Origin: Terriglobia bacterium
GTDB taxonomy: Bacteria; Acidobacteriota; Terriglobia; Bryobacterales; Bryobacteraceae
DNA: 64,000 nt
NCBI GenBank assembly: GCA_020073305.1
Contig: JAIQFK010000002.1
Span: 248,001-312,000 of the forward strand
Reading direction: 5' to 3'
Made by a program: the position numbers and the translations under genes
Notes under the pieces: generated by a model
Told to the model about the DNA's origin: nothing
The model's database searches: none
What the model saw: the letters and a program-made list of their open reading frames with translations, nothing else
In this document: positions 941 to 3,633 of the stretch, in pieces
Numbering within the stretch: the stretch's first letter is position 1
Layout: every line of letters begins with the position of its first letter

Positions 941-1198
941 ATGCCAACCCGCAATGTCAATTTGACCGACAAACTCGACCGCTTCGTGCTGAAAAAGGTC
1001 GCAAGCGGCCTTTACGAAAATGCCAGCGAGGTTGTACGCGCAGCGCTGCGGACATTGGAACGTGAGGAACAGGAGCAGGCGGCGAAGCTTGCCGCGCTGC
1101 GGACGGCGATCGACGACGGCGACGCCAGCGGCATCGCCAAGGGCAGGGCTTTTGAGCGTGTCCGGAAAACGCTCCATCTTCCCGCGACGCGGCGCTAG
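941..1198 (+). CDS. parD: ParD-family ribbon-helix-helix antitoxin
   Basis: 85 residues. The N-terminal MPTRNVNLTDKLDRFVLKKV and the following SGLYENASEVVRAALRTLE are the ribbon-helix-helix core of ParD antitoxins; the acidic, Ala-rich tail is the region that normally wraps the toxin. In the family the protein represses its own promoter and neutralises ParE. I chose ATG 941, which starts the conserved MPTRN, rather than an in-frame upstream start at 899. The toxin gene starts 4 nt after the stop, as expected for a co-transcribed pair. Confidence 0.88.
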   Translation: MPTRNVNLTDKLDRFVLKKVASGLYENASEVVRAALRTLEREEQEQAAKLAALRTAIDDGDASGIAKGRAFERVRKTLHLPATRR

Positions 1199-1201
1199 GC
1201 C

Positions 1202-1534
1202 GTGCCTTCGTTTCGTCTCTCGCGTCGCGCCGAAGTTGACCTGCTAGGCATCGGCGCTCATACCCTTCGTACCTGGGGCGAAGACCAGACAGTCCGCTAC
1301 CTTGACGATCTTGAGGCCTGTTGCCAGATGCTTGCCGATAATCCTGCGTCGGGCCGAAATTGCGATGATGTTCGCCCCGGCCTGCGTCGCGTGGAGCGCG
1401 GCCGGCATGTCATCTTTTACCGGGAGACGGCCGAGGGTATTCTGGTTTCCCGCATCCTCCACCAACGCATGCTGCCCGAAAAACACGCCATCGACGACGA
1501 TGACAATGGGCCACAGGAGAAGATCCGCTCCTAA
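1202..1534 (+). CDS. parE: ParE/RelE-superfamily toxin
   Basis: 110 residues, GTG start 4 nt after parD. The pattern FRLSRRAEVDLLGIGAHTLRTWGEDQTVRYLDDL, then NPASGRNCDDVRPGLRRV, HVIFYRE and ILVSRILHQRM, is typical of ParE toxins, which poison DNA gyrase. An acidic tail (AIDDDDNGPQEK) extends past the usual end of the family. The stop codon overlaps the end of the convergent peroxiredoxin gene. The subfamily, and hence the target, is inferred from the ParD partner; a RelE-like ribosome-dependent activity cannot be excluded. Confidence 0.88.
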   Translation: MPSFRLSRRAEVDLLGIGAHTLRTWGEDQTVRYLDDLEACCQMLADNPASGRNCDDVRPGLRRVERGRHVIFYRETAEGILVSRILHQRMLPEKHAIDDDDNGPQEKIRS

Positions 1535-1986
1535 TTCAGGACGGACAGCACTTCCGCGGCGTGCCCGGCGGCCTTGACGTTGGAGAAAATCTTCTCGATT
1601 TTTCCGTCCGCGCCGATCAGAAACGTGGAGCGCACGATGCCCATCACCTTTTTCCCGTACATATTCTTTTCCTTGAAGACGCCGTAGGTGTCGGCTACTT
1701 TTTTGTCGACGTCGCAAAGAAGGGTGAAGGGCAAATTGTGCTTGGCTTTGAATCGCGCCTGAGCGGACGGAGTGTCGGGTGAAATGCCAAGCACCACGAC
1801 GCCTTTCTTGCTGAACTGCTTGATCGCATCACGAAACTCGTGAGCTTCTGTGGTTCAGCCCGGGGTGTCGGCGCGCGGATAGAAATACAGCACCACCTTC
1901 TGGCCTTTTAGCTTCGAGAGCTGGAAGGGTTCGCCGGTGTCGGTCTGTAGCTTGATTTCAGGAGCTTTGTCGCCTTCTTTGAGCAT
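1531..1986 (-). CDS. bcp: Bcp-type peroxiredoxin with in-frame TGA at the catalytic position (probable selenoprotein)
   Basis: Read through one TGA, the frame gives 151 residues, the usual length for Bcp/PrxQ thiol peroxidases. Start MLKEGDKAPEIKLQTDTGEP; core VVLYFYPRADTPG then TGA (1857-1855, codon 44), then TTEAHEFRD; the rest continues in frame to GVVVLGISPDTPSAQ, the Thr/Arg region GIVRSTFLIGADGKI and the stop. In the family, DTPGC carries the peroxidatic cysteine, so TGA replaces exactly the catalytic residue. The usual second Cys, five residues on, is His here, suggesting a one-Cys type enzyme. Lies 35 bp downstream of gatB, same strand. Alternatives: sequencing error or a TGC-to-TGA nonsense mutation. 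Confidence 0.82.
1829..1843 (-). promoter_or_regulatory. putative bacterial SECIS hairpin
   Basis: On the mRNA strand the sequence TCACGAGTTTCGTGA folds into a 6-bp perfect stem (TCACGA/TCGTGA) with a GTT loop. The loop begins 18 nt after the TGA of codon 44. Bacterial SECIS elements that recruit SelB lie inside the coding sequence shortly downstream of the UGA and have a small apical loop with G among its first bases; spacing and loop both fit. Seen directly; function is inferred. Confidence 0.6.
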
Positions 1987-2021: not shown

Positions 2022-3500
2022 CTATTCCAGTTTCTTCCGTAGCAGTTCATTAACCGCTGCCGGATTGGCCTGGCCGCGCGAGGCCTTCATCACTTGTCCG
2101 ACGAAGAATCCGAGCACGGTCGCTTTGCCCGCACGATATTGTTCAACCTGTTTGGGATTGGCGCTGATTACGTCGTCGACGATTTTCTCGAGCGCGCCCG
2201 AATCGCTGACTTGCTTCAGACCCTCGCGCTCCACGATGGCGGAGGGGGCGTCGCCCGTGGCAATCATCTTGGCAAAAACTTCTTTTGCCTGCTTGCCAGT
2301 GATGTCCCCCTTCGCTTTCAATTGAATCAGCTCCCCAAGATGCCGCTCCGTGACCGGAGATTCGCTGATCTGCTTATCCGCCGCCTTCAACGCAGCCGCA
2401 AGATCGCCCATGATCCAATTGGCTGCGGCCTTCGGGTCGCCAGCCGCAGTGGCCGTTCCTTCAAAATACTCACTGACCGCGCGGTCGGCGGTGAGCCAAT
2501 TGGCATCGTACTCAGACAGTTTGTAATCGACAATAAACCGCTCGCGCTTCTTTGCCGGCAGCTCCGGCATCGCCGCACGGACCCGCTCCCGCCACGCCTC
2601 GCTAACGTGCAGCGGCACCAGGTCGGGCTCGGGGAAATAGCGGTAGTCGTGGGCGTGTTCCTTGCTCCGCATACCCACGGTTTCGCCGGTCGCGACGTTG
2701 TAAAGGCGGGTCTCCTGCTCAACGCGCCCACCGGCTTCGAGCACAGAAACCTGGCGCGCGATCTCGTAATCCAGCGCCATCTTCAAAAACCGGAACGAGT
2801 TCAGGTTCTTGACTTCCGCCTTGGTGCCGAACTTCTCGGCGCCCTTCAGCCGCACTGATACATTGGCGTCGCAGCGCAACTGGCCTTTCTCCATGTCGCA
2901 GGCCGACACTTGGACGAACTGCATCACCTGCTTCAGCTCGGTCAGAAACGTGTAGGCTTCGTCCGAGCTGCGCATGTCCGGCTCGGTTACGATTTCAATC
3001 AGCGGCGTGCCGCAGCGGTTGAGATCGACGTACGTGTAGCGGTCGGAATCGCTGAAGCCCTCGTGAATGCTCTTGCCGGCATCATCTTCCATGTGGACGC
3101 GCGTGATGCCGATGCGCCGGGGCGCGCCGTCGATTGAGATGTCCACCCGGCCGTGCTCGGCGAGCGGCTCGTCGTACTGAGAGATCTGATAGCCCTTGGG
3201 CAGGTCCGGATAGAAGTAGTTCTTGCGCGCAAAACGCGACACCGGGCCAATGGTGCAATTGAGCGCCATACCCGCGCGCATGGCCATCTCCACAGCTTCG
3301 CGGCTCAGCACGGGCAGTGCGCCCGGCAGGCCCAGGCAAACCGGGCATACGTTGGTGTTGGGCGGCGCGCCGAAACTGGTGGGACAGCCACAGAAGATCT
3401 TGCTGGCGGTGGCCAGTTGCACGTGCACTTCCAGGCCGATGACCGGTTCGTACTTGGAGATTACTGCAGGCGGAACCAGTTCCGCGGCCGGGGAAGACAT
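2022..3500 (-). CDS. gatB: Asp-tRNA(Asn)/Glu-tRNA(Gln) amidotransferase subunit B
   Basis: 492 residues. The GatB signature YEPVIGLEVHVQLATASKIFCGC is at the N-terminus, with further conserved blocks (TNVCPVCLGLPGALPVLSREAVEMAMRAGMALNC, RKNYFYPDLPKGYQISQYD, LIEIVTEPDMRSSDEA) and the C-terminal GatB/YqeY tail ending NELLRKKLE. It is the kinase/tRNA-binding subunit of the GatCAB complex, which amidates misacylated Glu-tRNA(Gln) and Asp-tRNA(Asn). GatA and GatC are not in the window. Start placed at ATG 3500 (MSSPAAELV); an ATG at 3509 is also possible. The next gene on this strand is the peroxiredoxin. Confidence 0.96.
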   Translation of the reverse strand: MSSPAAELVPPAVISKYEPVIGLEVHVQLATASKIFCGCPTSFGAPPNTNVCPVCLGLPGALPVLSREAVEMAMRAGMALNCTIGPVSRFARKNYFYPDLPKGYQISQYDEPLAEHGRVDISIDGAPRRIGITRVHMEDDAGKSIHEGFSDSDRYTYVDLNRCGTPLIEIVTEPDMRSSDEAYTFLTELKQVMQFVQVSACDMEKGQLRCDANVSVRLKGAEKFGTKAEVKNLNSFRFLKMALDYEIARQVSVLEAGGRVEQETRLYNVATGETVGMRSKEHAHDYRYFPEPDLVPLHVSEAWRERVRAAMPELPAKKRERFIVDYKLSEYDANWLTADRAVSEYFEGTATAAGDPKAAANWIMGDLAAALKAADKQISESPVTERHLGELIQLKAKGDITGKQAKEVFAKMIATGDAPSAIVEREGLKQVSDSGALEKIVDDVISANPKQVEQYRAGKATVLGFFVGQVMKASRGQANPAAVNELLRKKLE

Positions 3501-3633
3501 TGAAACCATTATAAGAGAGCCGGGAGTGCACGCCAATGAAAGCGAATTGTATACTGGAACTTCAGCATGAACATGTGAATTTTCTCGCGCGCGTGGTGCG
3601 CTCGATCCTTGTTCAGCATCAGAGGAATTGGAA

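What the first reader, a model, noticed from the sequence alone, without database searches (positions are those of the whole stretch)
1531..1986. Probable selenocysteine peroxiredoxin: TGA in place of the peroxidatic Cys, with SECIS-like hairpin 18 nt on
The Bcp frame is complete (151 residues) except for a single TGA at codon 44, which is exactly the Cys of DTPGC. Twelve to 26 nt after the TGA the mRNA can form a perfect 6-bp stem with a GTT loop, at the spacing required of bacterial SECIS elements. A random nonsense mutation would be unlikely to hit the catalytic codon and keep the rest intact. Sec-containing peroxiredoxins are known in a few bacteria. The His in place of the usual second Cys makes a one-Sec mechanism plausible.
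Basis: partly seen in the sequence, partly recalled or inferred. Interest (0 to 1): 0.88.

Follow-up and report, generated by a model that had tools for sequence, protein, structure and literature searches.

The report
Selenocysteine peroxiredoxin in an acidobacterium
A peroxide-destroying enzyme of an acidobacterium is written with a stop codon where its reactive cysteine should be, and the evidence says that the cell reads this stop as selenocysteine, the selenium amino acid; such enzymes are a known kind, but close relatives here have switched between sulfur and selenium several times.

Summary
Window 1531-1986 (minus strand) encodes a 151-residue Bcp/PrxQ peroxiredoxin with one in-frame TGA, at the peroxidatic Cys (codon 44), and a 6-bp GUU hairpin 12-26 nt on. 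The genome carries selA, selB, tRNA-Sec(UCA) and selD, and selD has a TGA at its Sec site. A strict DNA pattern found the same TGA in 20 of 650 genomes of the phylum, this one included; all 20 encode AhpC-TSA proteins. Five more loci came from a named collection (one probably a duplicate). RNA after the TGA folds more strongly in Sec than in Cys homologues, beyond synonymous shuffles. The hairpin alone is weak evidence: 6 of 200 shuffles fold as well, and its -7.3 kcal/mol just misses the published cut-off. The two closest homologues carry TGC without a comparable hairpin, so Sec and Cys have alternated: 10 changes on a quick tree, at least 6 on its well supported branches. The resolving Cys is missing in 11 of 25 Sec forms against 4 of 102 Cys forms, so a one-Sec mechanism is plausible but unproven. 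Sec-peroxiredoxins of the COG1225 kind are in print; this is a new member. The same genome holds two further candidate Sec peroxidases.

The parts
1531..1986 (-). Bcp/PrxQ-type peroxiredoxin gene, 151 residues with Sec at 44, stop included
   Evidence: AF2 model pLDDT 95.4, nearest solved folds Bcp/PrxQ
1855..1857 (-). UGA codon at the peroxidatic Cys position, read as selenocysteine
   Evidence: same codon TGA in 24 further loci
1826..1845 (-). SECIS-like hairpin, +10 to +29 after the UGA: 6-bp upper stem, GUU loop, bulged U on the 3' side, 2-bp lower stem, -7.3 kcal/mol
   Evidence: Sec versus Cys homologues
1835..1837 (-). apical loop GUU (starts +18 after the UGA)
1840..1842 (-). His49 codon CAC at the place of the resolving Cys (Cp+5)
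2022..3509 (-). gatB-like gene just upstream on the same strand, possibly one transcript with the peroxiredoxin gene (context only; start codon not settled)
   Evidence: a similar frame ends just before the homologue in L031 and L033; named by eye, no family search

Best explanation
It is a selenoprotein gene. Ribosomes reach UGA44; a SelB-tRNA-Sec complex held by the hairpin just downstream delivers selenocysteine, so that a full-length PrxQ/Bcp-type peroxiredoxin with Sec as peroxidatic residue is made. The Sec selenolate, set by Pro37, Thr41 and Arg119, reduces hydroperoxides. Because the Cys at Cp+5 is missing (His49), the selenenic acid is probably resolved by an outside thiol (thioredoxin, glutathione or another small thiol) or by Cys91. 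Shown by sequence: frame, TGA position, sel genes, conservation across genomes, selection on RNA folding. Inferred: actual Sec insertion, SelB binding, peroxidase activity, the reductant.
For: Complete Sec machinery: tRNA-Sec 76.5 bits, ARAGORN tRNA-SeC anticodon tca; selB, selA, selD with its own TGA in AAGUASKLSP. Pattern for TPG-TGA-T..EA: 11 of 257 genomes of the order and 10 of 396 of the phylum (own genome in both), 0 matches for the reversed pattern; 20 of 20 open as one frame through the TGA and all score as AhpC-TSA. In the 19 other such genomes selB passes its cut-off in 17 and tRNA-Sec exceeds 60 bits in 16; each has at least one. RNA +10..+37 folds at mean -9.8 kcal/mol in 25 Sec genes against -4.7 in 102 Cys genes, P 1e-12; within the order -10.0 (n=11) against -6.2 (n=28), P 9e-6, although that Sec set has lower G+C. 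Synonymous-shuffle z, mean -1.89 against -0.29. The Phe codon co-varies with the stem partner in Sec genes (P 3e-4), not in Cys genes (P 0.78). Paired cells, cells changed on both sides and covariation score each beat all 500 shuffles and all six slid versions. After the TGA dN 0.17, dS 1.8 against G211. Thr41 and the U column are invariant in all 25 Sec rows, Pro37 in 24.
Against: The window's minimal hairpin is -7.3 kcal/mol, just short of the -7.5 that the published bSECIS model asks; my scan by that model rejects it while passing 21 of 25 Sec loci, and it also passes 22 of 102 Cys loci (criteria). RNAalifold finds no consensus structure on the 25-row alignment. In one search two of five measures are ordinary: pairs changed on both sides (48 of 500 shuffles reach it) and pair types (99 of 500), and slid versions equal or exceed both. 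Nearest homologues G106 and G212 have TGC. selA is common in the order (206 of 257), so its presence does not discriminate; 2 of 11 Sec-Prx genomes of the order lack it above cut-off. The 102 Cys loci include 74 from the named collection, part of them from other phyla, and overall G+C is 0.58 in Sec and 0.54 in Cys loci. Related sequences are treated as independent. No protein or read data.
Confidence: 0.95

Rival explanations
1. Nonsense mutation or sequencing error in an ordinary Cys peroxiredoxin gene (pseudogene or artefact).
For: The two closest homologues carry TGC, one base away; the hairpin alone is near chance.
Against: TGA at the same codon in 24 other loci, one in the same genus; rest of the frame intact and under purifying selection; in the listed rows of the order search the stops inside are all TGA (list cut); sel genes present.
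Confidence: 0.02
2. UGA is read through, but with another residue: Cys, Trp or Ser put in by near-cognate or mischarged tRNA, with or without the hairpin.
For: No peptide data exclude it. Insertion of Cys at Sec UGA under low selenium is recalled from animals, not from a call.
Against: tRNA-Sec with UCA anticodon, SelA, SelB and Sec-type SelD are present; folding is selected just after the UGA; Trp or Ser at Cp should disable a peroxiredoxin (general knowledge).
Confidence: 0.03
3. The hairpin reflects only the conserved protein sequence EFRD and base composition, and Sec insertion uses some other signal.
For: Part of the stem lies in codons for the conserved E/G-F-R-D; 22 of 102 Cys genes also have a stem of 5 or 6 bp at this place, against 16 of 25 Sec genes with 5 or more; RNAalifold gives none; six Sec loci have 0-1 bp at this place.
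Against: Against shuffles that keep the protein, all 25 Sec rows have negative z and 15 are reached by at most 5% of shuffles; synonymous sites co-vary only in Sec genes; Sec genes of the order have lower G+C than the Cys genes compared; five of the six loci without this stem pass the bSECIS scan with another hairpin, loop at +22 or +23.
Confidence: 0.08

Closest known systems
Bacterial Sec-containing peroxiredoxin (Prx), COG1225 (Bcp), motif TxxU
   Same: Same kind of domain, Sec at the peroxidatic place, PxxxTxxU motif, downstream bSECIS-like hairpin; listed in PMC9312934 and PMC13188914 (passages seen), 43 genes in the Sargasso Sea set of PMC1088965 (passages seen), 12 proteins and 5 Cys-to-Sec events in PMC1794560 (passages seen)
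   Different: Carriers in Acidobacteriota; many lack the Cys at Cp+5; short hairpin, often with a GUU loop. I did not compare with the sequences of the published members
PrxU of Eubacterium acidaminophilum (NF040737)
   Same: Peroxiredoxin with Sec (title seen in the reference lists of PMC9312934 and PMC8533274)
   Different: Another peroxiredoxin subfamily: 44.5 bits against a cut-off of 270
Thiol peroxidase Prx-SUH (NF045827)
   Same: Sec peroxiredoxin (table entry seen in PMC13188914)
   Different: 35.9 bits against a cut-off of 298
Cys-type PrxQ/Bcp, for instance Xanthomonas PrxQ
   Same: Fold: TMq 0.97 to 9a4d_B (ACKA-BCP model) and 0.80-0.92 to 11 Xanthomonas rows; catalytic Pro, Thr, Arg
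   Different: Cys instead of Sec; these use a Cys at Cp+5 or in helix 3 as resolving residue (recalled; C48S and C84S mutants are named)

Membership tests
Sec-containing peroxiredoxin, COG1225/TxxU | AhpC-TSA / Bcp-type peroxiredoxin domain | tested here: met
   PF00578 140 bits; NF006960 162.6 against 140
Sec-containing peroxiredoxin, COG1225/TxxU | In-frame UGA at the peroxidatic position of PxxxTxxU | tested here: met
   P37...T41..U44
Sec-containing peroxiredoxin, COG1225/TxxU | Sec-decoding machinery selA, selB, selC, selD in the genome | tested here: met
Sec-containing peroxiredoxin, COG1225/TxxU | TGA-containing and Cys-containing homologues aligned at the same column | tested here: met
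   25 TGA and 102 Cys loci
Bacterial SECIS (bSECIS model quoted in PMC13188914) | 3-9 nt apical loop on a 4-16 bp upper stem, G in the first two loop positions | tested here: met
   GUU loop, 6 bp
Bacterial SECIS (bSECIS model quoted in PMC13188914) | 16-37 nt between UGA and apical loop | tested here: met
   17 nt lie between them; loop starts at +18
Bacterial SECIS (bSECIS model quoted in PMC13188914) | Free energy at or below -7.5 kcal/mol | tested here: inconclusive
   -7.3 for the minimal hairpin, scan misses it; -9.0 for +10..+37; -19.7 for a 63-nt stretch in which the UGA itself pairs
Sec-containing peroxiredoxin, COG1225/TxxU | Selenium at the residue in the purified protein | not testable with these tools
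   needs mass spectrometry
PrxU (NF040737) | Score above the curated cut-off of 270 | tested here: not met
   44.5 bits

The most novel reading that the evidence does not exclude
In this phylum the swap of Cp from Cys to Sec repeatedly frees PrxQ from its resolving Cys, giving a one-Sec peroxidase, in some lineages (7 of 20 pattern loci, one of them cut by the contig end) with no cysteine at all, whose reductant must be an outside thiol; it is also a lineage in which Sec and Cys alternate often enough to follow the switch, perhaps in both directions.
Probability: 0.45. Interest if true: 0.6.

Novelty: new member of a known kind. Interest (0 to 1): 0.42.

Why it matters
Read by the standard code the gene ends as a 43-residue stub. 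PMC1794560 (passages) links Sec forms, peroxiredoxin included, with anaerobes and calls Sec/Cys replacements mostly unidirectional; here one tree of the family needs 10 changes, and the window, its congeners G211 (Sec) and G212 (Cys) and the near G106 (Cys) differ among themselves. Loss of the resolving Cys next to Sec gives a direct test of why an enzyme keeps selenium. Three further UGA genes in the same genome (SelD and two peroxidase-like proteins) suggest a partly selenium-based peroxide defence.

Tried and rejected
Hairpin as sole proof: rejected, since 6 of 200 shuffles reach it and the window misses the -7.5 cut-off.

Lower stem in which UGAAC pairs with GUUCA: weak; TTCA downstream in 9 of 25 Sec and 14 of 102 Cys loci, P 0.018, four words tried, two of them at P under 0.05.

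RNAalifold consensus: none found.

Link of C_R loss with Sec by independent pairs on the tree: same direction in 2.5 of 6 pairs on average, opposite in 0.1, no difference in 3.4, median p 0.5. The simple Fisher tests, P 1.7e-6 (25 against 102) and 9e-4 (order only, 11 against 28), ignore kinship.

Co-occurrence with selA as evidence: not discriminating, 206 of 257 genomes of the order have it above cut-off.

FdhA as a further selenoprotein: a search of the own genome with Molydop_binding gave 4 matches, none with a stop inside; I do not think that this domain holds the Sec site (recalled), so it does not exclude one.

Papers: Acidobacteriota + selenocysteine + peroxiredoxin found 0; selenocysteine + peroxiredoxin + resolving cysteine + bacterial selenoprotein 0; soil + selenoproteins + UGA + Acidobacteriota 0; the first ten of selenoprotein/Bryobacter/selenocysteine, two of three terms, were not to the point by title. 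One search (Acidobacteria + selenoprotein + selenocysteine) listed 13; of these I looked at passages of PMC1794560 only, whose table gives Acidobacteria 4 selenoproteins of 3 families, not named in the passages I saw. Supplements could not be searched.

Full report
What is there. On the minus strand at 1531-1986 a 151-codon frame has one TGA, at codon 44 (1857-1855), in the motif ADTPG-U-TTEAHEFRD. It is a Bcp/PrxQ-type peroxiredoxin by Pfam and by NCBIfam above cut-off. An AlphaFold2 model from nine Sec homologues has mean pLDDT 95.4, and its best Foldseek matches are Bcp and PrxQ structures, TMq 0.97 to 9a4d_B.

Organism. I infer a member of Bryobacterales, Acidobacteriota. Its habitat is not known from any call.

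Sec machinery. The window's genome (G000, 6.98 Mb, 99.9% complete, 5% contamination) has selA 508 bits, selB 359 bits and selD 368 bits, all over the curated cut-offs, and a tRNA-Sec of 76.5 bits which ARAGORN calls tRNA-SeC with anticodon tca. One search gave eight weaker matches; the six that I checked are Ser, Gly or Tyr tRNAs, one of them over Rfam's own cut-off. So in other genomes I count only matches above 60 bits, a limit of my own. selD itself has a TGA in AAGUASKLSP, the catalytic site of Sec-type SelD (recalled), followed by a hairpin with GGU loop starting at +21.

Conservation of the TGA. A protein search of 257 genomes of the order found a homologue in all; in the listed rows (the list is cut) nine have a stop inside, and all nine are TGA. 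I then used a strict DNA pattern: 11 of 257 genomes of the order match and 10 of 396 sampled over the phylum, the own genome in both; three genomes are in both sets, so 20 of 650. The reversed pattern matched none. All 20 matches run as one frame through the TGA, one cut by its contig end, and all are AhpC-TSA proteins. The pattern demands TPG-U-T..EA and so misses other variants. Of 109 further homologues, 78 have TGC, 24 TGT and 7 TGA; two of the 7 are already among the 20. That gives 25 Sec and 102 Cys loci. L098 and L155 give identical proteins and may be one species in two collections; so do the Cys loci L034 and L071. The named TGA loci are MAGs called Bryobacterales, Terriglobia, Acidobacteriales, Pyrinomonadaceae (two) and Chloracidobacterium.

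Machinery in these relatives. In the 19 other genomes with the pattern, selB passes its cut-off in 17 (not G104, G311) and tRNA-Sec exceeds 60 bits in 16 (not G010, G137, G282); each genome has at least one of the two. Of the 11 in the order, 9 have selA over its cut-off (not G010, G056; for G104 and G236 I judge by E-value, their rows being off the list); but so do 206 of all 257.

The RNA element. The window hairpin (+10..+29) has a 6-bp upper stem, a GUU loop starting at +18 and a bulged U. It meets the loop, stem and distance rules of the bSECIS model quoted in PMC13188914 (passages) and misses the energy rule by 0.2 kcal/mol. In my scan by that model 21 of 25 Sec loci pass against 22 of 102 Cys loci; within the order 10 of 11 against 11 of 28. 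The window is one of the four Sec loci that fail (with L168, L170, L108). The stretch +10..+37 folds at -9.8 kcal/mol on average in Sec and -4.7 in Cys loci; within the order at -10.0 and -6.2. Shuffling synonymous codons gives mean z -1.89 in Sec and -0.29 in Cys loci; all 25 Sec rows are negative, 15 reached by at most 5% of shuffles. Where codon +6 has A or G as second base, the Phe codon after it is TTT or TTC to match in 19 of 21 Sec loci; in Cys loci there is no such link. On the 25-row alignment paired cells, cells changed on both sides and the covariation score beat all 500 shuffles and every slid version; the other two measures do not, and RNAalifold finds nothing. Six Sec loci have 0-1 bp at this place; five of them pass the scan with another hairpin whose loop starts at +22 or +23.

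History. A quick tree of 127 proteins (SH-aLRT only, 48 of 123 inner branches weak, long branches L162/L163 and L166/L167 joined) needs 10 Sec/Cys changes, at least 6 on starred branches. The window groups with a Cys form (G106) at support 90, near a Cys (G212) and a Sec form (G211) of its own genus. The two Cys neighbours fold at -0.4 and -4.2 kcal/mol where the window has -9.0. G106's protein has Asn at the C_R place, which would fit a return from a Sec form without C_R; this is a guess. The direction of the changes is not settled.

Mechanism. Thr41 is invariant in 25 Sec rows and Pro37 in 24 (Leu in L162); Arg119 is seen in all but the cut row L170. C_R at Cp+5 is missing in 11 of 25 Sec forms and 4 of 102 Cys forms. 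In the window His49 stands there and Cys91 is the only Cys; 7 of the 20 pattern loci show no Cys at all, one of them cut short (start codons not settled). I infer a one-Sec cycle with an outside thiol. Related sequences are not independent, and the pair test on the tree is not significant.

Selection. Against G211 the part after the TGA has dN 0.17 and dS 1.8, so it is kept as protein. Of the four rows compared there, L151 crosses an indel in that part and is not used; L154 and L153 give dN 0.23 and 0.31 with dS 1.1 and 1.6.

Wider selenoproteome. The own genome has eight matches to this protein at E 0.001, the best paralogue 39% identical without a TGA. Two others have one TGA: a second AhpC-TSA protein with FTGG-U-TKEM (L172) and one with a hydrophobic N-terminus and RGYW-U-PFC (L174). 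L172 has a hairpin with GGC loop at +24; L174 an 11-bp hairpin whose CCG loop starts at +14 and has no G in its first two places, so it breaks two rules of the bSECIS model. Neither reaches an NCBIfam cut-off. I did not test their TGA in relatives.

Literature. Sec peroxiredoxins of COG1225 or TxxU type are listed in PMC9312934 and PMC13188914 and counted in PMC1088965 and PMC1794560, and peroxiredoxin selenoproteins in PMC5029168 (passages seen in each). PMC1794560 gives 5 Cys-to-Sec events and none the other way for peroxiredoxin and links Sec forms with anaerobes. I therefore call this a new member of a known kind.

Noticed in passing
L174 (own genome, C5:112915-113298): AhpC-TSA protein with TGA at RGYW-U-PFC and an 11-bp hairpin right after (CCG loop at +14, outside the bSECIS rules): candidate UxxC selenoprotein.
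   Followed up: partly
L172 (own genome, C9:109766-110158, minus): Second peroxiredoxin-like protein with TGA at the Cp place (FTGG-U-TKEM) and a hairpin with GGC loop at +24 and bulged U: candidate selenoprotein.
   Followed up: partly
L067 (own genome, C36): selD has TGA at its catalytic site with a GGU-loop hairpin at +21: Sec-type SelD.
   Followed up: yes
window 941-1534, plus strand: ParD/ParE toxin-antitoxin pair lying between a mutS2-like gene (named by eye) and the peroxiredoxin gene and overlapping the latter's 3' end by 4 bases; in G106 (L030) a similar mutS2-like frame runs right up to the peroxiredoxin gene.
   Followed up: partly
L030 (G106): Closest listed homologue (82%) has Cys at Cp but Asn at the resolving place and no comparable hairpin, in a genome 72% complete with selB above cut-off but no selA match.
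   Followed up: partly
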